Source: Flagellatimonas centrodinii (GTDB lineage: Bacteria > Pseudomonadota > Gammaproteobacteria > Nevskiales > Nevskiaceae). From it: a stretch of DNA of 64,000 bases. Shown here one piece after another: positions 4,966 to 44,001 of the stretch. Under the pieces are notes generated by a model, which had not been told where the DNA came from, did no database searches, and saw only the letters and a list, made by a program, of their open reading frames with translations. The stretch covers positions 1,240,001 to 1,304,000 of the forward strand of contig NZ_CP092104.1 of assembly GCF_016918765.2 (NCBI RefSeq). The letters are read 5' to 3'. The number at the start of each line of letters is the position of its first letter. The stretch's first letter is position 1. Position numbers and translations under genes: made by a program.

Positions 4966-5123
4966 GGGTATCGGCGCGTTCGGACGTGCGGGCCTGGCAT
5001 GGTACGGCGGTCGCCGCAGCCGCGTGCGGCGGGGCCGGCGCTGCGCCTGGCACGATTCTGGCTGGGACTGTCGTGAGCGGGCGTTGCACAGTCCCTGGCT
5101 TATGAGACACAGTGTCACCAATG

Positions 5124-5222
5124 GTTGACTAGGGTTCCGGTCCGCGGCATGCGGATGGCTGGACCGAGAGTCGGCGACCTCCGGCAACGGGGGTTACACG
5201 GCGGGATAAAAGCCCGGGAGAT
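5124..5222 (+). promoter_or_regulatory. Guanidine-I riboswitch (ykkC class)
   Basis: The stretch contains the hallmark pieces of the guanidine-I aptamer in order: an AGGGTTCCGG segment near 5131, GGACCGAGAGTCGGCGACCT from 5161, then ACACGGCGGGATAAAAGCCC from 5197 followed by GGGAGA. These match the conserved core that binds guanidinium. It lies about 70 bases upstream of the importer start and in the same direction, so it should turn the operon on when guanidine is present. The switching platform lies between 5223 and 5290; I could not assign a terminator versus Shine-Dalgarno mechanism. Confidence 0.93.
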
Positions 5223-5292
5223 CACAGGTTCTGTTGCTGTGAGTCGTCCGCCGCCGTTTGCCGCTCCCGCCTGATCAATGAGGTCAACCATC

Positions 5293-6399
5293 ATGTTCTC
5301 CCAATCCCGTCTTGCCGCATCCGCCGCCGCCCTGCTGGCGATCGCCGCCGTTGTCGGCTGCACCAAAAAGGACGAGGCCGCCGCACCCGAACCGGTCGCT
5401 GCCGTTGCCAAACCCGAATTCAAGGTCTGCTGGACCATCTACGCCGGCTGGATGCCATGGGAATACGGCGGCACCCAGGGCATCGTCAGCAAATGGGCCG
5501 ACAAGTACGGCATCGACATCGACGTGGTGCAGATCAACGACTACGTCGAGTCCATCAACCAGTACACCGCCGGCGCCTTCGACGGCTGCACCATGACCAA
5601 CATGGATGCCCTCACCATTCCCGCCGCTGGCGGCGTCGACAGCACCGCGCTGGTGGTGGGTGACTTCTCCAACGGCAACGACGGCATCGTGCTCAAGGGC
5701 AGCGGCAAGTCGCTGGCCGATCTCAAGGGCCTGCCGGTGAATCTGGTGGAACTCTCGGTGTCGCACTACCTGCTGGCGCGCGGGCTGGAAACCGTCGGCC
5801 TGGCCGAGCGTGACCTGCAAGTGGTGAACACGTCCGATGCCGACATCGTCGCCGCGTTCGCGACGCCGGACGTCAAGGCCGCGGTCACCTGGAACCCGCT
5901 GCTGGCCGAAATCACCGCCATGTCGGACACCACCCAAGTGTTCGACTCCAGCCAGATTCCCGGCGAGATCATCGACCTGATGGTGGTCAACACCGCCACC
6001 CTGGCAGCGCACCCCGAGCTGGGCAAGGCGCTCACCGGGGCCTGGTACGAGATCATGTCGATCATGTCGGCCGACAGCGACGCCGGCGTCGCCGCACGCA
6101 CCCATATGGCACAGGCCTCCGGCACCGACCTTGCCGGCTACGAAGCGCAGCTGGCCGCCACCCGCATGTTCTACCAGCCCGCCGACGCACTGGCCTTCGT
6201 CACCAGTGCTGAACTGCCGGCAACGATGGAGAAGGTGGCCGCGTTCTCCTTCACCCACGGCCTGCTCGGCGAAGGTGCTGCGGATGCCGGCGCGGTCGGC
6301 ATGGCCTACCCCGGCGACATCACCACCGGCAACGCCGAGAACATCAAGCTGCGCTACACCGACACCTTCCTCAAGCTGGCTGTCGACGGCGCGTTGTAA
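5293..6399 (+). CDS. ABC transporter substrate-binding lipoprotein, guanidine/urea-carboxylase operon
   Basis: I place the start at the ATG at 5293 (368 residues). It has GAGGT eight bases upstream, whereas the ATG at 5278 has none. The N-terminus carries a lipobox VVGC with Cys23, so the protein is anchored in the periplasm. The body is an NMT1/TauA-like solute-binding fold of the type found in urea-carboxylase operons, with the motif WTIYAGWMPWEYGG after the linker. It is the first gene under the guanidine riboswitch and is followed by permease and ATPase genes. Guanidine is the likely ligand by context; binding itself cannot be read from the sequence. Confidence 0.9.
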   Translation: MFSQSRLAASAAALLAIAAVVGCTKKDEAAAPEPVAAVAKPEFKVCWTIYAGWMPWEYGGTQGIVSKWADKYGIDIDVVQINDYVESINQYTAGAFDGCTMTNMDALTIPAAGGVDSTALVVGDFSNGNDGIVLKGSGKSLADLKGLPVNLVELSVSHYLLARGLETVGLAERDLQVVNTSDADIVAAFATPDVKAAVTWNPLLAEITAMSDTTQVFDSSQIPGEIIDLMVVNTATLAAHPELGKALTGAWYEIMSIMSADSDAGVAARTHMAQASGTDLAGYEAQLAATRMFYQPADALAFVTSAELPATMEKVAAFSFTHGLLGEGAADAGAVGMAYPGDITTGNAENIKLRYTDTFLKLAVDGAL

Positions 6400-6408
6400 G
6401 CCCGCACC

Positions 6409-7227
6409 ATGCGGCTGATCAACCAGATTCCGGCCCGGGGGGCGCGGCTGTCGCTGGCCGCGCTGCCCTTCCTGTTGCTGCTGCTGGCCTATGCCTTCGG
6501 CTCCAGTCAGCGGCTGGCGGACAACCCCGACGACAAGCTGCTGCCCAGCGCCGGGCAGATGGCCGATGCGGTCGGTCGCATGGCTTTCGCCGAAGACCCC
6601 CGCAGCGGCGACGTGCTGTGGTGGAAGGACACCGGCGCCAGCCTGCAACGGCTGGCACTGGGCCTGAGCATCAGTGCGGTGCTGGGTCTGGTGCTGGGCG
6701 TGGCTGCCGGCGCGGTGCCGCTGCTGGGCGCGCCACTGACGCCGGTGGTGACGGTGGTGTCGATGATCCCGCCGCTGGCGGTGCTGCCGATCCTGTTCAT
6801 CGTGTTCGGGCTCGGCGAGCTGGCCAAGGTGATGCTCATCATCGTCGGGGTGGCGCCCTGCATCGCACGGGACATCGAAGGCCACGCCCGACAGATTCCC
6901 CGCGAGATGCTGATCAAGGCACAAACGCTCGGCGCCAATACCTGGACGGTGATTCTGCGGGTGGTGCTACCGCAGCTGATGCCCCGGCTGCTGATCTCGC
7001 TGCGGCTGTTGCTCGGCTCGGCCTGGTTGTTCCTGATCTCGGCCGAGGCCATCGCCTCGACCGACGGGCTCGGCTACCGCATCTTTCTGATGCGCCGCTA
7101 TCTGGCGATGGACGTGATTCTGCCTTACGTGGCCTGGATCACCCTGCTCGCCTGGCTGATGGATCTCGGGCTGCGCAGAACGTCGCTGCTGCTGTTCCCC
7201 TGGTTCGACGACGGGCGTCGCGCATGA
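6409..7227 (+). CDS. ABC transporter permease (NitT/TauT type)
   Basis: The protein is 272 residues with about six membrane segments and the BPD_transp_1 coupling region around EAQTLGAN-like residues (here KAQTLGANTWTVILRVVLPQ, about residues 170-189), which contacts the ATPase. It follows the binding-protein gene by nine bases and overlaps the ATPase start by ATGA. It forms the membrane channel of the predicted guanidine importer. Confidence 0.9.
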   Translation: MRLINQIPARGARLSLAALPFLLLLLAYAFGSSQRLADNPDDKLLPSAGQMADAVGRMAFAEDPRSGDVLWWKDTGASLQRLALGLSISAVLGLVLGVAAGAVPLLGAPLTPVVTVVSMIPPLAVLPILFIVFGLGELAKVMLIIVGVAPCIARDIEGHARQIPREMLIKAQTLGANTWTVILRVVLPQLMPRLLISLRLLLGSAWLFLISAEAIASTDGLGYRIFLMRRYLAMDVILPYVAWITLLAWLMDLGLRRTSLLLFPWFDDGRRA

Positions 7228-8024
7228 GCTTTTTGCAGATCGACCATGTGTGGCAGACCTACGGCGACACCACCGTGCTCGAAGACCTGTCGCTGTCGAT
7301 CACCGAGGGCGAGTTCTGCTCGCTGGTCGGCGCCTCCGGTTGCGGCAAGTCGACCTTCCTGCGGCTGCTGCTGGGGCAGGAACGCGCCAGCCGGGGTCGC
7401 ATCCTGCTCGACGGCACACCGATTCCGCCCGAGCCCGACGCCAGTCGCGGTGTGGTGTTTCAGCGCTATTCGGTATTTCCGCATCTGAGCGTGCGCGACA
7501 ACGTGCTGGCCGCCTTCGAACTGCGGGCGGCCCCGTTCACGGGGCGGCTGTTCGGGGGCACGCGGCGCGCCGCACGTGAGGAGGCCGATGCCATGCTCGA
7601 GGCAGTCGGGCTCGGAGCCGCGCGCGATCGCTATCCGGCGGCGCTGTCCGGCGGCATGCAACAGCGCCTGGCCATTGCCCAGGCACTGGTGATGAAGCCC
7701 CGGGTACTGCTGCTCGACGAACCCTTTGGCGCGCTGGACCCGGGCATCCGCAAGGACATGCATGCCCTGTTGCTCGCTCTCTGGCGCCAGACCGGGCTCA
7801 CCGTATTCATGGTCACCCACGACCTCAGCGAGGGCTTCACCCTGGGGACGCGTCTGCTGGTGTTCGACAAGCTGCGTCACGACCCGCAGCACCCCAGCGC
7901 CTATGGCGCACGCATCACCTACGACATCCCGCTCAATGCCGATCGTGCCGCAGCGCGCAGCACGCTACCCGACATCGCCGAGATCATCCGACCGTCACCG
8001 CTCACCGAGGACGCCGTTGCATGA
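7224..8024 (+). CDS. ABC transporter ATP-binding protein
   Basis: This 266-residue ATPase has a Walker A GASGCGKST (about residues 37-45), Q-loop VVFQRYSVFPH, signature LSGGMQQR, Walker B VLLLDEPFGALD and the switch histidine in MVTHDLSE. It resembles TauB/SsuB-type subunits. The start is the ATG at 7224 overlapping the permease stop, and its own stop overlaps the next ATG, so translation of the four genes is coupled. A C-terminal extension of about 45 residues follows the core, as in other urea-carboxylase-linked members. Confidence 0.92.
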   Translation: MSFLQIDHVWQTYGDTTVLEDLSLSITEGEFCSLVGASGCGKSTFLRLLLGQERASRGRILLDGTPIPPEPDASRGVVFQRYSVFPHLSVRDNVLAAFELRAAPFTGRLFGGTRRAAREEADAMLEAVGLGAARDRYPAALSGGMQQRLAIAQALVMKPRVLLLDEPFGALDPGIRKDMHALLLALWRQTGLTVFMVTHDLSEGFTLGTRLLVFDKLRHDPQHPSAYGARITYDIPLNADRAAARSTLPDIAEIIRPSPLTEDAVA

Positions 8025-8731
8025 GACTGCTGTATGACGAAATCCTTCCCGGCGGCGGGCACTGGTCCGCCATCCTCCGCCGAGGACGCTGCCTGCGGGT
8101 CACCGATCCGGAAGGGGGCGCCAATGTCGCCTTGCTGGCGTTCAATGCGGCGGAAAAAAGTGAGCGGCTGAACCTGCCGGACTCGCTCAAATGCCAACAC
8201 ACCGCTCGCTTCACCGCCGGTCACTGTCTGTACTCGGACATGGGCCATGTGCTGCTCTGTGTGACCGCCGACAGCGCCGGCTGGCATGACCCGATTGGCG
8301 GCATCAGCACTGCCGACGAGGTCCGGACGCGTTATGGCGAGGGCAACTACCAAACCCTGCGCAACGGCTTTCACCGCAATGGCCGCGACAATCTGCTGGT
8401 AGAACTGGGCAAGTGGGGGCTGGGCCCGGCCGACCTGGTGATGAACCTCAACCTGTTCAGTCGCCTCGATGCCGGCGCCGATGGCGAGCTGCGCTGGCAG
8501 CCGCAACTTTCGCCCGCCGGCGCGCATGTCGACCTGTTCGCACCGATGGACACGCTGGTGGTCCTGACCGCCCTGCAGCATCCGATGGATCCGGCCACCA
8601 CCTACGCGCCGAAGCCGGTGCAGCTTGGCGTGTACGCCGTTGACGACACCACCGCCGCCACTGCGGCCTGTCGCAGCGCCCGGCCGGAAAACGGTCGCGG
8701 CCTGATGCTCACCGAACGGTTGTACCTCTGA
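8021..8731 (+). CDS. DUF1989 protein, urea carboxylase-associated (UAAP1-like); probable carboxyguanidine deiminase subunit
   Basis: The 236-residue protein belongs to the DUF1989 'urea amidolyase associated' family. In guanidine-degrading Pseudomonas, two such proteins form a heteromeric carboxyguanidine deiminase that converts the carboxylated product to allophanate. Visible family features are [18 protein letters not shown] (near 27-44), a Cys-His pair in LKCQHTARF and a later HDPIGG, plausible metal ligands. It overlaps both neighbours (ATGA with the ATPase, TGATG with the next gene). I cannot tell which subunit of the published pair it matches. Confidence 0.85.
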
Positions 8732-9375
8732 TGCCCACCCACGTTCTCACCGAGAGTCCGCGCCGTGTCGCCGACGCCGTCCACCGCCAAGTGGTCGCTG
8801 CTGGCGATGCCTGGATGGGCACCCTGAAGGCCGGACAGACCTTCCGCATCCTCGACCTCGAAGGCAACCAGGCCGTCGATACCCTCTTCTTCAATGCCGA
8901 CGATCCCGGCGAGCGCTATGACCCCCAGCGCACGCTGCGCCAGCAGGGCCGGGTCTATCTCAGTACCGGGTCGGTGCTGATGTCGAATCTCGGCCGTCCG
9001 CTACTGGAGATCACTGCCGACACCTGTGGTCGTCATGACACCCTCGGCGGCGCCTGCGCCCAGGAAAGCAACATGGTGCGCTATGCCCTCGATACCCGGC
9101 ACATGCATTCCTGCCGCGACAGTTTCCTGCGCGCCATCGCCAATGACGGCCGCCTCGGCAAACGCGACCTCGGCGCCAACATCAACTTCTTCATGAACGT
9201 CCCCGTCACCGCCGACGGCGGACTGTGCTTCGCCGACGGTGTTTCGGCGCCGGGCAAGTACGTGGAGATGGTGGCGGCGATGAACATTCTGGTGCTGATC
9301 TCGAACTGCCCGCAGCTGAACAATCCCTGCAATGCCTACAACCCGACGCCGGTTGAACTGTTGGTGTGGGACTAG
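8731..9375 (+). CDS. DUF1989 protein, urea carboxylase-associated (UAAP2-like); probable carboxyguanidine deiminase subunit
   Basis: The second DUF1989 protein has 214 residues. It shows [18 protein letters not shown] (near 33-50), [15 protein letters not shown] with His and Cys, and [13 protein letters not shown], all as expected of the family. Start and stop of the two paralogous subunits overlap in TGATG, which favours equal synthesis. By family knowledge and riboswitch context it should act on carboxyguanidine, with allophanate as product. After its stop the operon is interrupted by about 825 bases of repeats before the carboxylase gene. Confidence 0.85.
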
Positions 9376-9402
9376 GGGGGTGGTAAATGACGTTGTCGAA
9401 AC

Positions 9403-9560
9403 GTGTTATTCACATGCCAGCAATGGTTTCGCCCCGCTGGGCGAGGCACCTTTCTTTGCTTGTGCAAAGAAACGTCCCCCAAAGAAAGCACACCCCAAGG
9501 CGTGGACTGCGGATACATCGTGGTGCTGGCCATCCTGGCGAGCCGTCGGTGCACGAGCCA
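9403..9560. repeat. Hairpin-rich intergenic repeat, divergent copy
   Basis: This stretch resembles the repeats at 9869-10126 and 43676-43934. It contains the shared core GGTTTCGCCCCGCTGGGCGA, then a perfect hairpin TTTCTTTGC/GCAAAGAAA (9452-9473), and a downstream GCTGGCCATCCTGGCGA segment. It lies 28 bases after the second DUF1989 stop. It has no convincing gene, and short open frames here are artefacts of the repeat. Confidence 0.75.
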
Positions 9561-9639
9561 ACCCCAGCCCGTCAGCGAGCGATGCTCGCAAAGCGACGGG
9601 GTTCACCCTGCGCTGCTCACGTGCTCGGGGTCGGTCTGA

Positions 9640-9845
9640 GACGACATCCCTGTCGTCGCATCCCTCAGCCGGACATCGTGTCCGGCTGCCCCCTGTGCGC
9701 GCTGCGCTGCTCGGTCCACGCCAAGGGGCCCCAGAAGCGAAAAGCGTCCCGGTCCGGTCGTTGTGGCTTTTCGTCCCGTTAGAGGGCGCCGGACGGTCTG
9801 ACGAGCGCAGGGGAGCGCGGGACACGATGTCCCGCTCAGGGCCAT
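9640..9845. repeat. Three short hairpins with a GACA/TGTC core
   Basis: Perfect stem-loops occur at 9640-9657 (GACGACA/TGTCGTC, loop TCCC), 9667-9687 (AGCCGGACA/TGTCCGGCT, loop TCG) and 9827-9845 (GCGGGACA/TGTCCCGC, loop CGA). All share GACA and TGTC next to the loop while the outer stem differs, so they look structurally conserved rather than simply copied. They lie in the 825-base non-coding gap between the second DUF1989 gene and the carboxylase gene. Confidence 0.7.
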
Positions 9846-9868
9846 CGCGGCAGGAGCCGCTTTGGCCC

Positions 9869-10126
9869 GGCCCCGAGCACGGCAGAGCGGCCGGGGACCG
9901 GCGCAGCCGGCGCCCTCTCCGGGTGCCCTTTCTTTTCGCCTCTTTTCTTTGGGCACGCAAAGAAAAGGGGCTCGCCCAGCAGGGCGAAACCACTGCAACC
10001 GAAATACGTAAGCGTGTCGACGGAGTCCCGCGCTGTGAGTCGACGCCGTTGCTTAGTTGTACCGCCAAGGCACCTTGGTACTGCCCATCGTGGCGACCTC
10101 TCCTCGCGAATCCCTTACGGCCACGG
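9869..10126. repeat. Intergenic repeat copy A (inverted relative to 43676-43934)
   Basis: The core from 9869 to about 10026 matches the reverse complement of the copy ending at 43934 with about six mismatches by eye. Weaker similarity continues to about 10126. It includes the strong hairpin CCTCTTTTCTTTG/CAAAGAAAAGGGG (9939-9970). From here to 10200 I see no gene. No Shine-Dalgarno is obvious before the carboxylase ATG at 10201. Confidence 0.85.
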
Positions 10127-10200
10127 CCCCGATGCCGGCGCGCCGCCGCTCGTAAGCAGCGCTCGCCGAGCAGCGAAGCTCACTCAATAGCCCGGTCTCC

Positions 10201-13200
10201 ATGTTCTCCACCGTCCTGATCGCCAACCGCGGTGCCATCGCCACCCGCATCCTCCGCAGCCTTGAAGCCCTCGGCATCAACGGGATCGCGGTGTATCACG
10301 AGGCCGATCTGGCCAGCCTGCATGTGGCCCGCGCCCAGCAGGCGGTCAGCCTCGGTGAGGGCACCGCGGCCGACACCTATCTCGACGCCGACCGCCTGCT
10401 GGCCGTGGCGCAGCAGACCGGCGCGCAGGCGATCCACCCCGGCTACGGGTTCCTGTCCGAAAACGCTGACTTCGCCGAGGCCTGCGAGGCGGCCGGCATC
10501 GGCTTCCTCGGGCCGACACCCCAACAGATGCGGCAGTTCGGCCTCAAGCACACGGCGCGGGCGCTGGCCGAAGCGGCCGGCCTGCCGCTGCTACCGGGGA
10601 CCGGTCTGCTCGACACGATCGCACAGGCCCAGGCCGCAGCGGCGACGATCGGCTATCCGGTGATGCTCAAGAGCACCGCTGGCGGTGGCGGTATCGGCAT
10701 GCGGGTCTGTGTGGATGCCGAAGACCTGGCGCGCCAGTTCGACGCCGTGCGACAACTGGGGCAGAAACAGTTCCGCGACGACGGCGTGTTTCTGGAGAAG
10801 TACATCGCCCGAGCACGTCATCTGGAAGTGCAGATCTTTGGCGACGGCGACGGCGGGGTAATCGCTCTCGGCGAGCGCGACTGCTCGGTGCAGCGCCGCA
10901 ACCAGAAAGTGATCGAGGAAGCCCCGGCGCCCAACCTGGACCCCACCATCCGCGCTGCGCTGCACACCGCCGCCGTGCGCCTCGCCCAATCCGTCAATTA
11001 CCGTTCTGCCGGCACGGTCGAGTTCGTCTACGACTGTGACGCCGGGCAGTTCTATTTTCTCGAGGTCAACACCCGGTTGCAGGTCGAACACGGTGTCACC
11101 GAACAGGTGTACGGCGTCGATCTGGTGCGCTGGATGATCGAACTGGGGGCCGGCACGCTACCGTCGTTGGATGCACTGGCAGCGACGCTGCGGCCCGAGG
11201 GACATGCGATCCAGGCGCGGCTCTACGCGGAGGATCCCGGCAAGGATTTCCAGCCCAGCCCCGGCCTGCTCACCGAGGTGGTCTTGCCGCCGTCCGACGG
11301 TCGTGCGCTGCGGGTCGACACCTGGGTGCAGGCGGGGGTCGAGGTGCCGCCGCTGTTCGACCCGATGATCGCCAAGCTGATCGCCTGGGCGCCGGACCGT
11401 GACGGAGCCCGCGTCCGGCTGGATGCTGCGCTGACGCAGACCCGGCTTTACGGCGTGGAAACCAATCGCCTCTATCTGCAGCAGATTCTCGGCTACGCCG
11501 CCTTCGCCGAGGGCCGCGCCTGGACCCGCTGCCTGCAGGATCTGCCCTACCGTGCGCCCACCGTCGACGTGGTCCGCGCCGGCACCCAGACCACGGTGCA
11601 GGACCTGCCCGGCCGTCTCGGCTATTGGGCCGTGGGCATTCCGCCTTCGGGGCCGATGGACAGCCGCAGCCTGCGCGACGGCAACCGCCTGCTTGGCAAC
11701 CCGGAGACGGCACCGGCGCTGGAGATCACGCTGGCCGGCCCGGCCCTGCGGTTCAATGCCGCCACCACCGTGGTGGTGACCGGCGCCACCCTGCCGCTGC
11801 TGCGCGACGGTGATCCGGTGCCGATGTACACGCCGGTCACCATCGCGGCCGGTGCCACGCTCGACATCGGCGCCGTCGCCGGTGCCGGGGCCCGCGCCTA
11901 CCTCTGCGTGCAGGGCGGCTTCGCGGTTCCCCACTATCTCGGTTCGGCGAGCACCTTCACCCTCGGTCAGTTCGGCGGCCACGCCGGGCGGGCGCTGCGG
12001 GTGGGCGATGTATTGCATCTGGCCGACGCCCGTGCGACGACAGCGCCCGCATCCACCGGGTCTCCGGTGGCGGCACTTGAGCTGCCGCCGGTGCGGCAAT
12101 TGCGGGTGATGATCGGCCCGCATGCCGCGCCCGACTTCCTCACGCCCGCTGGCCTCGACACCTTTCTCGCCAGCGAGTGGACGGTGCACTTCAATTCGTC
12201 GCGCACCGGCATCCGCCTGATCGGACCGAAGCCGGACTGGGCCCGCGCGCATGGCGGCGAAGCCGGGCTGCACCCTTCAAACATCCACGACAATGCCTAC
12301 GCCATTGGCGCCGTCGATTTCACCGGCGACATGCCGGTGATTCTCGGGCCCGATGGCCCCAGCCTGGGGGGCTTCGTCTGCCCGGTGACGGTGATCGAAG
12401 CCGATCTCTGGCAGCTCGGGCAGCTCAAGGCGGGTGACCGTCTGCGCTTCCTGCCGGTGGCTATGGCCGAAGCCCGCGCCATCATCACCGGCACCCGCAC
12501 CGACGCTCCGACCCCGATGGGCGCTGACGCTGCGGTGGTGCTCGACGTGGGCACTGGCGCCACCCGCCTGGTCGCGCGCCTGGCGGGCGATACCCATCTG
12601 CTGCTGGAGTTCGGCCCCCCGGAGATCGACCTTGCCACCCGATTCCGCGGCGATGCCCTGATGACCGCGCTGGAGGCGGCGGCACTACCAGGCATCATCG
12701 ATCTCACCCCCGGCATCCGCAGTCTGCAGCTGCACCGTCGCCCCGAAGCGATGCCGCTGGCGGCGCTGCTGGACACGGTGAAAGCCGAGTGGTTGCGCGT
12801 CTGTGCCGCCGACACGCTGCGCCTGCCCTCGCGTATCGTGCACCTGCCGCTGTCATGGGACGACCCCAGCACCCGGCTGGCGATCGAGAAGTACCAGACC
12901 ACCGTGCGCCCGGGCGCGCCCTGGTGCCCCAGCAATCTCGAGTTCATCCGCCGCATCAACGGTCTCGACAGCATCGAAGCGGTGAAGCGCATCGTCTTCG
13001 ATGCCCACTATCTGGTCATGGGCCTCGGCGACGTCTATCTCGGCGCACCGGTGGCCACGCCGCTGGACCCGCGGCATCGGCTGGTCACCACCAAGTACAA
13101 CCCGGCGCGCACCTGGACCCCGGAAAACGCGGTCGGCATCGGCGGCGCCTATCTTTGCGTCTACGGGATGGAAGGTCCGGGCGGCTACCAGTTCGTCGGC

Positions 13201-13779
13201 CGCACCCTGCAGATGTGGAACCGTCACCAGGCCATCCCGGCATTCCACGGTCAGCCGTATCTGTTGCGCTTCTTCGATCAGATCCGTTTCTTCGAGGTCA
13301 GCGCCGACGAGCTGACGCAGATCCGTCGCGCGTTTCCGCTGGGGCGCTATCCGCTGCGGATCGAGGAGACCACCCTCGATCTCGCCGACTATCAGCAGTT
13401 CCTGACGACCGAAGCCGCCAGCATCGCGGCATTTCGTCAGTGCCAGCAGGCTGCCTTCGAAGCCGAGCGCGCCGATTGGGCCGCCAATGGCCACGACCGC
13501 TTCGAGCTGCCCGCGGAAACGCCGGCACCCGCGGACGGTGATGAGGTGGTGGCGGTCGGTGACACCGGCGTCTACAGCCCGGTCGCCGGCAATCTCTGGC
13601 AGATGCGCGTTGCGCCGGGCGAGACCGTCGCTGCGGGGCAGGTGCTGGCGGTGATCGAGGCCATGAAAATGGAAATTCAGGTCACCGCCGCCGCCGCCGG
13701 CACTGTGTCACGTACCTGGACACAGCCCGGGCGAGCGGTGAGGACCGGCCAGCTGCTGGTCAGCCTCAGCGCCGGCTGA
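10201..13779 (+). CDS. Biotin-dependent carboxylase of the urea/guanidine carboxylase family; probably guanidine carboxylase
   Basis: At 1192 residues this matches the full bacterial family length. Residues 1-450 are biotin carboxylase (start MFSTVLIANRG, Gly-rich ATP loop GGGGIGMR near 161-168, EVNTRLQVEH). Residues about 460-1000 are the KipA/KipI-like carboxyltransferase halves. A linker region contains LGDVYLGAPVATPLDPR and KYNPARTWTPEN. The biotinyl domain at the C-terminus has EAMKME with biotin acceptor Lys1156. Such enzymes under a guanidine-I riboswitch carboxylate guanidine rather than urea. No allophanate hydrolase is fused to it or follows it, so the last step must be encoded elsewhere. 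The 825-base repeat gap upstream may separate it from the rest of the operon. Confidence 0.9.
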   Translation: MFSTVLIANRGAIATRILRSLEALGINGIAVYHEADLASLHVARAQQAVSLGEGTAADTYLDADRLLAVAQQTGAQAIHPGYGFLSENADFAEACEAAGIGFLGPTPQQMRQFGLKHTARALAEAAGLPLLPGTGLLDTIAQAQAAAATIGYPVMLKSTAGGGGIGMRVCVDAEDLARQFDAVRQLGQKQFRDDGVFLEKYIARARHLEVQIFGDGDGGVIALGERDCSVQRRNQKVIEEAPAPNLDPTIRAALHTAAVRLAQSVNYRSAGTVEFVYDCDAGQFYFLEVNTRLQVEHGVTEQVYGVDLVRWMIELGAGTLPSLDALAATLRPEGHAIQARLYAEDPGKDFQPSPGLLTEVVLPPSDGRALRVDTWVQAGVEVPPLFDPMIAKLIAWAPDRDGARVRLDAALTQTRLYGVETNRLYLQQILGYAAFAEGRAWTRCLQDLPYRAPTVDVVRAGTQTTVQDLPGRLGYWAVGIPPSGPMDSRSLRDGNRLLGNPETAPALEITLAGPALRFNAATTVVVTGATLPLLRDGDPVPMYTPVTIAAGATLDIGAVAGAGARAYLCVQGGFAVPHYLGSASTFTLGQFGGHAGRALRVGDVLHLADARATTAPASTGSPVAALELPPVRQLRVMIGPHAAPDFLTPAGLDTFLASEWTVHFNSSRTGIRLIGPKPDWARAHGGEAGLHPSNIHDNAYAIGAVDFTGDMPVILGPDGPSLGGFVCPVTVIEADLWQLGQLKAGDRLRFLPVAMAEARAIITGTRTDAPTPMGADAAVVLDVGTGATRLVARLAGDTHLLLEFGPPEIDLATRFRGDALMTALEAAALPGIIDLTPGIRSLQLHRRPEAMPLAALLDTVKAEWLRVCAADTLRLPSRIVHLPLSWDDPSTRLAIEKYQTTVRPGAPWCPSNLEFIRRINGLDSIEAVKRIVFDAHYLVMGLGDVYLGAPVATPLDPRHRLVTTKYNPARTWTPENAVGIGGAYLCVYGMEGPGGYQFVGRTLQMWNRHQAIPAFHGQPYLLRFFDQIRFFEVSADELTQIRRAFPLGRYPLRIEETTLDLADYQQFLTTEAASIAAFRQCQQAAFEAERADWAANGHDRFELPAETPAPADGDEVVAVGDTGVYSPVAGNLWQMRVAPGETVAAGQVLAVIEAMKMEIQVTAAAAGTVSRTWTQPGRAVRTGQLLVSLSAG

Positions 13780-13788
13780 GCATCACCG

Positions 13789-14970
13789 TCAGCGATTGCG
13801 CCCATAGCGGTCGTGGCTGGTCACCCAGTCACCGGCAATCACGGCGCAGCTCAGCGAAATATCGCCGGCCAGCACCACGCCGCCACAGATCTCGGCGAAC
13901 TTGTGGGACTTGTCACGCCCGTGGCAGCCGAGCATCTCCAGGCCCTCGCGCTGGGTGGCGAGGCCGGTGCCACCGCCGTGCGTGGCCACGATCAAGGAGG
14001 TCAGGGTCACCGACCAGTAGTAGTCGCCGTTGTCGAGCAACTGGCAGTAGGTGGTGGCGGCATGGGATTCCGACACGTTGGCCACGTCCTGGCCGGTGGC
14101 GATGAACAGCGCGGTGAGGCCGTTGGCGGCATGCGCGCCGTTGTTGGCCGAACCGGCGATGAAGGCACCGGCCTGGGAGATCTGCCGCACCCGGAACAGT
14201 TCCGCCGTGGTGGTCCCCATGATGCGCTCCACCGCCTCGGCCTTGAGCGTGCATTCCGCCACCACCCGTTTGCCACGGGTCAGCAGCGTGTTGATCTGGG
14301 AGTGCTTCTTGTCGGTGTCGATGTTGCCGGAGAGCACGAATGCCGGATGGTCGGGATGCTGATCGCGAATCCATTCACAGGCGGCCAGGGTGGCCTTGCT
14401 GACCATGTTCTGGCCGGCGGCGTCCCCGGTGGTGAAGTTGAAGCGCAGATAACGCAGCGGGCCGATCGCGAACTGCATGATGTCGCGTAGCCGGCCGGAA
14501 CGGGTGGTGGCCTCGGCCGCCGCCCGGATGCCGTCCATGTTGTCGACCACCCAGCGTCCGAACTGGCGGGCGGCCAGGGCGTCGGGGAAGGTGAACACCG
14601 GCGAGCGCTGCATGGCCTCGTCGACCACCGTCGCGCGCACGCCGCCGCATTCCGCCAGCAGGCGCATGCCGCGGTTGTAGCTGGCCACCAGGGTGCCTTC
14701 GGTGGTGGCCATGGGCACATAGAAGTCGCCCTGCGCATGCTCGCCGATCATCCGCAACGGCCCGGCCAGGCCCACGGGCACCTGTGCCACGCCGGTGAAA
14801 TGCTCGATGTTGCCGGGTAGCTGGTCGGTCGCCTGCGAAAACTGCCCCATGTGATGAAGTTCGACACCGGTCTGCTCGCGCACGAAGTCGCGCCGGCGGG
14901 CGGCGGCCTCCGGGCTGTAGTCGTTGTCGGTATCGCGGGGAATCCGGCGGCGGGGTTCGGTGGGGGTCAT
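13789..14970 (-). CDS. Hydroxymethylglutaryl-CoA reductase, class I-like
   Basis: The start at 14970 is preferred because GGAGG lies seven bases upstream; the ATG at 14976 touches that site. The 393-residue protein has VPVGLAGPL, PMATTEG (catalytic Glu91), GDAAGQNM in place of DAMGMN, TDKK (catalytic Lys221), GQD (catalytic Asp295), HGGGTGLATQ, and a late catalytic His386 in TSHDRYGRN, the same arrangement as the catalytic domain of class I enzymes. There is no membrane anchor. It would reduce HMG-CoA to mevalonate, or run in reverse. It stands alone, convergent with the carboxylase; no other mevalonate genes are in the window. Gammaproteobacteria normally use the MEP pathway, so its role is unclear and transfer is possible. 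Confidence 0.85.
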   Translation of the reverse strand: MTPTEPRRRIPRDTDNDYSPEAAARRRDFVREQTGVELHHMGQFSQATDQLPGNIEHFTGVAQVPVGLAGPLRMIGEHAQGDFYVPMATTEGTLVASYNRGMRLLAECGGVRATVVDEAMQRSPVFTFPDALAARQFGRWVVDNMDGIRAAAEATTRSGRLRDIMQFAIGPLRYLRFNFTTGDAAGQNMVSKATLAACEWIRDQHPDHPAFVLSGNIDTDKKHSQINTLLTRGKRVVAECTLKAEAVERIMGTTTAELFRVRQISQAGAFIAGSANNGAHAANGLTALFIATGQDVANVSESHAATTYCQLLDNGDYYWSVTLTSLIVATHGGGTGLATQREGLEMLGCHGRDKSHKFAEICGGVVLAGDISLSCAVIAGDWVTSHDRYGRNR

Positions 14971-15062
14971 CGGCATCCTCCAGGGTTTTCGGCAGTGTAA
15001 CGGCCCGCGAACCGCCCTCGTTTGGCGCTAAGCTGCGGCCTTCGCATCGGGGGAGCTTTCCC

Positions 15063-43675: not shown

Positions 43676-43934
43676 CCGGGCCGGAGTGGATTCGCGAAGT
43701 GACGCGTCGCCAGGATGGCCAGTGCCAAGGTTCATTCGCGGCACAACCCAACAGCGGCGTCGGTGCCGAGGGCTGTACTCCGTCGACACGCCTTCGTATT
43801 TCGGCTGCAGCGGTTTCGCCCTGCTGGGCGAGCCTCTTTTCTTTGCGTGCCCAAAGAAAAGAGGCGAAAAGAAAGGGCACCCGGAGAGGGCGCCGGCTTC
43901 GCCGGTCCCCGGCCGCTCTGCCGTGCTCGGGGCC
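43676..43934. repeat. Intergenic repeat copy B (inverted relative to 9869-10126)
   Basis: This is the second long copy of the hairpin-rich repeat, in opposite orientation to copy A. It carries a perfect 13-bp stem CCTCTTTTCTTTG/CAAAGAAAAGAGG (43833-43864) and the segments GGCACCCGGAGAGGGCGCCG and CCCGGCCGCTCTGCCG. I see no gene inside it. From 43935 to the dgt stop at 44002 nothing further is recognised. Confidence 0.85.
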
Positions 43935-44001
43935 GGTCCTCGCGCTTTTGCTTCTAACGAATCACCGGGCACCAGTCACATATCACGACGCCGCAGGCAC
44001 C

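What the first reader, a model, noticed from the sequence alone, without database searches (positions are those of the whole stretch)
9376..10200. 825-base hairpin-rich repeat mosaic splits the guanidine operon
The operon genes before it overlap by one to four bases, then 825 non-coding bases intervene before the carboxylase gene. The gap holds two copies of one repeat family and three GACA/TGTC hairpins. Such hairpins could end or attenuate transcription, giving less carboxylase than transporter, or stabilise the upstream mRNA.
Basis: partly seen in the sequence, partly recalled or inferred. Interest (0 to 1): 0.55.

Follow-up and report, generated by a model that had tools for sequence, protein, structure and literature searches.

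The report
Repeat mosaic displaced a guanidine riboswitch
Between two genes of a guanidine-degrading operon, where related bacteria carry a guanidine-sensing RNA switch, this bacterium instead has a long stretch of hairpin-forming repeat DNA that also occurs elsewhere in its genome, so its last enzyme has probably lost one of two guanidine switches.

Summary
The 825-nt gap is real, carries three GACA/TGTC hairpins and is about 96% repeat-derived: other places in the same genome align to gap positions 20-811. Its core (9420-9996) is a foldback element with 76-nt inverted arms (RNA-fold z -11).

In relatives, including both held congeners, the interval between UAAP2 (cgdB) and the carboxylase gene carries a guanidine-II riboswitch: 13 of 20 relatives' loci scanned reach the Rfam cut-off, 3 more score just below it. 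All three genomes of the genus keep the guanidine-I switch upstream of the operon; only the window's lacks guanidine-II. The mosaic thus sits where an internal, probably translational, switch used to be. The carboxylase gene is intact and under purifying selection.

Other hairpin-forming DNA, dispersed repeats in two of three cases tested, has entered this junction in other lineages, mostly upstream of a retained riboswitch; so repeats do not by themselves remove it.

Attenuation, termination or mRNA stabilisation by the mosaic is untested. The repeat itself looks ordinary: chromosomal, non-coding, BIME-like; part of it matches Rfam's TwoAYGGAY.

The parts
5118..5222 (+). guanidine-I riboswitch before the operon
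   Evidence: RF00442, 95.3 bits, cut-off 63
5278..8024 (+). importer genes: substrate-binding protein 5278-6399, permease 6409-7227, ATPase 7224-8024
   Evidence: NCBIfam TIGR03427 553.9 bits for the first; permease and ATPase families below their cut-offs; ATPase start
8021..9375 (+). UAAP1 (8021-8731) and UAAP2 (8731-9375); taken as carboxyguanidine deaminase subunits CgdA/CgdB (equation recalled, not tested)
   Evidence: TIGR03425 306 bits, TIGR03424 328.1 bits, both over cut-off
9376..10200 (.). the gap: repeat mosaic at the place where relatives carry guanidine-II
   Evidence: 792 of 825 bases alignable to other places of the genome; no RF01068 at E<=10
9420..9996 (.). foldback core element; copies suggest that the repeated part extends somewhat further on both sides, to about 9386 and 10030 (inferred from the alignment)
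   Evidence: inverted arms 9420-9495 / 9921-9996, 76 nt, 79% complementary; z -11.1 RNA, -10.5 DNA; alignment of copies
9451..9472 (.). left terminal hairpin TTTCTTTG...CAAAGAAA
9944..9965 (.). right terminal hairpin TTTCTTTG...CAAAGAAA
9627..9692 (-). TwoAYGGAY-like double hairpin; holds GACA/TGTC hairpins at 9643-9654 and 9672-9682
   Evidence: RF01731 49.9 bits, cut-off 43, model positions 45-113 of 168
9802..9841 (+). inverted partner of 9662-9701, with the third GACA/TGTC hairpin (9821-9831)
   Evidence: 40 nt, 80% complementary
10056..10186 (.). tail module, a separately dispersed repeat that reaches to 14 nt before the carboxylase start
   Evidence: matches at query 681-811 at other places
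10201..13779 (+). carboxylase gene (urea carboxylase family; read as guanidine carboxylase from context)
   Evidence: TIGR02712 1760.2 bits, cut-off 1303.85; dN/dS

Best explanation
SHOWN BY SEQUENCE: the gap is almost wholly made of dispersed chromosomal hairpin repeats (a foldback core plus a tail module); it occupies the UAAP2-carboxylase interval, where both held congeners and many more distant relatives carry a guanidine-II riboswitch; and no such riboswitch is recognisable in it. INFERRED: the ancestor of the genus had a two-switch operon, guanidine-I (transcription) before the importer and guanidine-II (translation) before the carboxylase gene. In the window lineage guanidine-II was lost as repeats entered or expanded, in an order that cannot be told. 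The operon is now governed by guanidine-I alone: the carboxylase message is reached by read-through of a rod-like RNA of roughly 650 nt and is no longer gated by guanidine at its own start. The rod probably lowers or uncouples carboxylase expression relative to the upstream genes, as operon-internal REP/BIME hairpins can, and is not itself a sensor.
For: Guanidine-II directly before the carboxylase gene at cut-off in 13 of 20 relatives' loci and just below it in 3 more. In the genus guanidine-I in 3 of 3 genomes, guanidine-II in 2 of 3, not in the window's. No RF01068 match in 9370-10230 at E<=10. The published V. boliviensis operon has the same two-switch layout with both switches probed in vitro (PMC12508155, passages). 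The gap is repeat DNA. Carboxylase intact, dN/dS 0.21-0.27 to two congeners and Hydrocarboniphaga, with rates like theirs (dS is near saturation). REPs are reported to aid Rho-dependent termination (PMC2817692, passage).
Against: In 10 of 24 relatives extra hairpin-forming DNA and a guanidine-II-like hairpin coexist, so repeat insertion does not itself explain the loss. No expression data. The genome-wide absence rests on 150 scored of 772 first-look candidates. L068-L070 and L194-L196, of the same family, lack the hairpin too, so its absence alone is not unique to the window. No promoter-like site in 9200-10400, but other promoter types are not covered. The start region has no clear Shine-Dalgarno, but neither do most relatives'.
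Confidence: 0.62

Rival explanations
1. One reading: the hairpins are a selected attenuator, terminator or 3' stabiliser that gives less carboxylase than transporter.
For: Terminator-like sites in excess; strong fold; copies lie downstream of at least one gene in 8 of 8 of the longest matches (for the window's own); hairpin-forming DNA recurs at this junction in 11 of 24 relatives; REPs aid Rho-dependent termination (PMC2817692, passage).
Against: The same repeat sits in unrelated places of the genome, so it was not made for this operon; T tracts are interrupted by C; no control of other intergenic regions was run; a complete terminator would silence an intact, conserved gene.
Confidence: 0.3
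2. Passive junk: the repeat is a neutral insertion tolerated in a long intercistronic interval, without effect on expression.
For: Dispersed repeat with many copies; modules gained and lost between copies; the junction already is a leader region in relatives.
Against: It coincides with loss of a switch conserved in relatives; 650 nt of stable untranslated RNA inside an operon is unlikely to be without effect (inference).
Confidence: 0.25
3. The carboxylase is now a separate transcription unit with a promoter inside the mosaic.
For: 825 nt is room enough; long leader regions often hold promoters (general knowledge).
Against: No sigma-70-type site in 9200-10400; the last 14 nt only are not repeat-like, so the promoter would be a repeat's.
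Confidence: 0.12
4. The gap holds an unannotated gene: a 274-codon stop-free run on the + strand, or the minus-strand frame.
For: 11 of 500 dinucleotide shuffles reach a 274-codon run. Minus-strand frames of 190-286 codons (in the element's orientation) recur in six other long copies.
Against: Differences between copies show no codon periodicity (34/35/33 in the most diverged copy, 22/18/23 in the next). Third-position G+C of those six frames is 0.62-0.68 against mostly 0.75-0.9 in neighbouring ORFs (the window's own gap frames were not scored).
Confidence: 0.02

Closest known systems
Two-switch guanidine carboxylase operon (Vreelandella boliviensis, PMC12508155, passages; three enterobacteria, PMC12186494, passages)
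   Same: Guanidine-I in the leader, importer, two UAAP/Cgd genes, then the carboxylase gene.
   Different: The internal guanidine-II switch is not found; an 825-nt repeat mosaic holds its place. No allophanate hydrolase gene follows in the operon; one lies beside a second carboxylase at G000:C1:1036341-1038017.
REP/BIME repeats (PMC2817692, passages)
   Same: Extragenic, palindromic, mosaic, inverted modules, inside an operon.
   Different: Much longer foldback unit, tens rather than hundreds of matches, no RAYT-type transposase found in the genome.
TwoAYGGAY RNA (RF01731)
   Same: 9627-9692 (-) scores over the cut-off; both hairpins and a closing stem align.
   Different: Only model positions 45-113 of 168 match; here it is part of an inverted-repeat element. 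Rfam types it cis-regulatory; the discovery table marks it 'n' for cis-regulatory (PMC2864571, one passage).
MITE or foldback transposon (general class, recalled)
   Same: Inverted ends, non-coding, several copies.
   Different: No cognate transposase or target duplication established; nearly absent from plasmid and phage records.

Membership tests
Guanidine-II riboswitch (RF01068) | two short hairpins with ACGR loops, Rfam score of at least 32 bits | tested here: not met
   no RF01068 match in 9370-10230 at E<=10; no GGGACGRCCC within one mismatch in 9376-10200
Guanidine-I riboswitch (RF00442), for the operon leader | Rfam score of at least 63 bits before the operon | tested here: met
   95.3 bits at 5118-5222
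TwoAYGGAY (RF01731) | Rfam score of at least 43 bits | tested here: met
   49.9 bits
TwoAYGGAY (RF01731) | match over the full 168-position model | tested here: not met
   positions 45-113 only
REP/BIME | extragenic palindromic repeat in mosaic clusters | tested here: met
REP/BIME | RAYT (PF01797) gene in the genome | tested here: not met
   0 matches in G000 at E<=0.001; 7 of 9 genomes searched have one
REP/BIME | GTAG/GTGG head on each palindrome | not tested
   not scanned
MITE or foldback transposon | terminal inverted repeats | tested here: met
   76-nt arms, 79% complementary
MITE or foldback transposon | target-site duplication and a transposase with the same ends | not tested
   no filled/empty pair of the same site in close strains is held
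Intrinsic terminator | G+C-rich hairpin followed directly by a U tract | tested here: inconclusive
   5 consensus sites vs mean 0.8 in shuffles, tails interrupted by other bases

The most novel reading that the evidence does not exclude
The UAAP2-carboxylase junction is a recurrent docking site where unrelated hairpin repeats are captured and kept because an RNA barrier between the guanidine-I and guanidine-II modules is useful; in the window lineage such a foldback repeat has taken over from the riboswitch itself, turning a ligand-gated gene into one set by a fixed RNA rod.
Probability: 0.12. Interest if true: 0.72.

Novelty: new variant of a known kind. Interest (0 to 1): 0.45.

Why it matters
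How the two switches of a guanidine operon share the work is open; [quoted passage not shown] A close relative that keeps the genes and the first switch but not the internal one is a natural mutant for that question. It is also a concrete case of dispersed repeats sitting where a riboswitch used to be, and it suggests that Rfam's TwoAYGGAY is, in this order, often part of a foldback repeat.

Tried and rejected
Remnant of guanidine-II before the start codon: TCACTCAA is shared with G001's linker, but the same stretch aligns to a repeat copy with GCTCACCCAGCAGGGCGAAACCC, so no remnant is claimed.

Hidden gene: rejected for lack of codon periodicity.

RAYT mobilisation: not supported; no PF01797 found in the own genome, nor in G003, which has 22 listed TwoAYGGAY matches.

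Plasmid or phage carriage: no phage match; one 58-nt match in a 4.9-Mb Aeromonas caviae record of the plasmid collection.

Shine-Dalgarno strength: weak in the window, but also in most relatives; uninformative.

Naming the repeat from print: six DNA strings of the terminal hairpin returned 18 listed papers that look unrelated by title and abstract; some searches were keyword searches of which I saw listings only, apart from passages of PMC2817692. So these searches did not find it described; no wider claim is made.

Terminal-hairpin covariation: 30 distinct sites were found without regard to orientation. My orientation filter kept 22 rows; on these, the pairs 1, 2, 3, 5 and 6 bases outside the fixed TTTCTTTG/CAAAGAAA stem are matched by 0-4 of 2000 shuffles, while pairs 4, 7 and 8 are not significant. 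Rows are related, so these are not probabilities.

Full report
OBSERVATION. UAAP2 ends at 9375 and the carboxylase starts at 10201. The gap is repeat DNA: 47 stretches of the own genome match it at E<=0.001, the gap itself and its inverted arms included; three matches elsewhere jointly cover gap positions 20-811, 96% of it. The core 9420-9996 is a foldback element: its 76-nt arms are 79% complementary and its predicted fold lies far beyond 100 shuffles as RNA (z -11.1) and as DNA (z -10.5). In it lie three GACA/TGTC hairpins and a minus-strand match to the Rfam family TwoAYGGAY (49.9 bits, cut-off 43). A tail module, 10056-10186, is a separately dispersed repeat that reaches to 14 nt before the start codon. 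An alignment of six own-genome copies, the window's included, shows modules gained and lost, such as an insert of about 125 nt in the left arm of the copy at 1164 kb and two inserts in the copy at 1331 kb. The eight longest copies, the window's included, lie between ORFs of a simple, uncurated ORF call, some of which reach into the repeat: five between codirectional and three between convergent ones, none between divergent ones (for the window's own). Differences among copies show no codon periodicity.

CONTEXT. The operon begins with a guanidine-I riboswitch, followed by importer genes, UAAP1, UAAP2 and the carboxylase. NCBIfam calls the last one urea carboxylase; I read it as guanidine carboxylase from context. 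A second carboxylase (55% identical) lies beside the only allophanate hydrolase over cut-off in this genome.

WHAT BELONGS IN THE GAP. I compared the UAAP2-carboxylase interval in all loci that hold both genes: 24 relatives beside the window. The expression finds the hairpin in 18 of 24, not in L068, L069, L070, L194, L195 and L196; it finds none in the window gap. Among named genomes I scanned 8 of the 71 loci: guanidine-I in 8, guanidine-II at cut-off in 5; the three misses are Methylophaga. In the genus, guanidine-I is found in 3 of 3 genomes and guanidine-II in 2 of 3, the window genome being the one without (there 150 of 772 first-look candidates were scored). A scan of 9370-10230 at E<=10 finds none.

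The layout is published: in Vreelandella boliviensis a class I switch lies in the 5'UTR and a class II switch between cgdB and gca, both probed in vitro (PMC12508155, passages); a review reports it for three enterobacteria (PMC12186494, passages). The V. boliviensis locus is also among mine (L087).

So the gap is the site of a missing riboswitch. Both congeners and outgroups have it, hence loss in the window lineage is the simplest reading; part of the family (L068-L070, L194-L196) lacks it as well. The carboxylase is still constrained (dN/dS 0.21-0.27 to two congeners and Hydrocarboniphaga, distances to the latter like the congeners' own; dS is high, so the ratio is rough).

RECURRENCE. Of the 24 relatives, 11 have at least 60 nt of extra DNA at this junction, upstream of the riboswitch-like hairpin in 10 of them, and in 11 of 11 it folds better than its shuffles (z -3.2 to -9.5). 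They are not independent: L056/L058, L057/L059 and L065/L066 are similar pairs. I tested three for dispersal. G001's piece has 44 matches in its genome, itself and its own inverted arms included. G074's has 90, itself included, while G023, G012, G075 and G079 of the same genus have 2-4 nt between the genes. G050's finds only itself and its own inverted arm in G050, but 31 matches in G041, the corresponding gap included. No control of other intergenic regions was run: recurrence is shown, enrichment is not. G001 also shows that a repeat can arrive without loss of the riboswitch.

THE REPEAT. Pieces of it match 39 of 61 genomes of the sample of relatives, own genome included, many of them by the terminal arms only (at most 8 candidates scored per genome). 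On 22 oriented terminal hairpins, pairs outside the fixed stem are kept at five of eight positions more often than in nearly all shuffles. TwoAYGGAY is over its cut-off in 16 of 37 genomes, own included. In 14 of 28 loci outside the own genome (the best-scoring ones, fetched) a TTTCTTTG...CAAAGAAA hairpin with at most two changes lies within 450 nt, against 19 of 2000 random segments; the other 14 lack it. By my hand count on the listing, opposite-strand pairs within 500 nt stand in minus/plus order 10 times and plus/minus once. So in this order the family is often half of an inverted-repeat element. The element is nearly absent from plasmid and phage records.

MECHANISM. Shown: location, repeat make-up, no recognisable guanidine-II, its presence in relatives. 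Inferred: loss, single-switch control, loss of translational gating, and a rod-like RNA that dampens or uncouples carboxylase expression. Which way the rod acts cannot be told from sequence.

Noticed in passing
L153-L182 and the listing: Rfam's TwoAYGGAY often comes as two divergent copies inside one inverted-repeat element (10 minus/plus pairs against 1 plus/minus, hand count) and in 14 of 28 loci near a TTTCTTTG...CAAAGAAA hairpin, so it may be a repeat module rather than a gene leader.
   Followed up: partly
window 43679-43939 (-): A second partial copy of the same element (87% identical, query 489-747) between two convergent ORFs.
   Followed up: partly
L195:5007-5359 (G074): A CTCTCCC-type hairpin repeat with 90 matches in its genome splits UAAP2 from the carboxylase where four genomes of the same genus have 2-4 nt.
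   Followed up: yes
G000:C1:1032721-1038017: Second carboxylase beside the only allophanate hydrolase over cut-off; the guanidine operon itself shows none after its carboxylase, so the last step may be borrowed from here.
   Followed up: partly
window 9332-10219 (+) and 9406-10068 (-): Long frames run through the repeat (295 and 220 aa), the kind that automatic annotation may call genes; no codon periodicity between copies.
   Followed up: yes
G050:C11:296384-296455 (-): In another genome of the order a terminal arm of the same element lies about 80 nt after the carboxylase gene's end.
   Followed up: no
window 13789-14976 (-): The next gene best matches NADPH-type HMG-CoA reductase (332.7 bits, below the 441.8 cut-off), which I recall as uncommon in gammaproteobacteria.
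   Followed up: no
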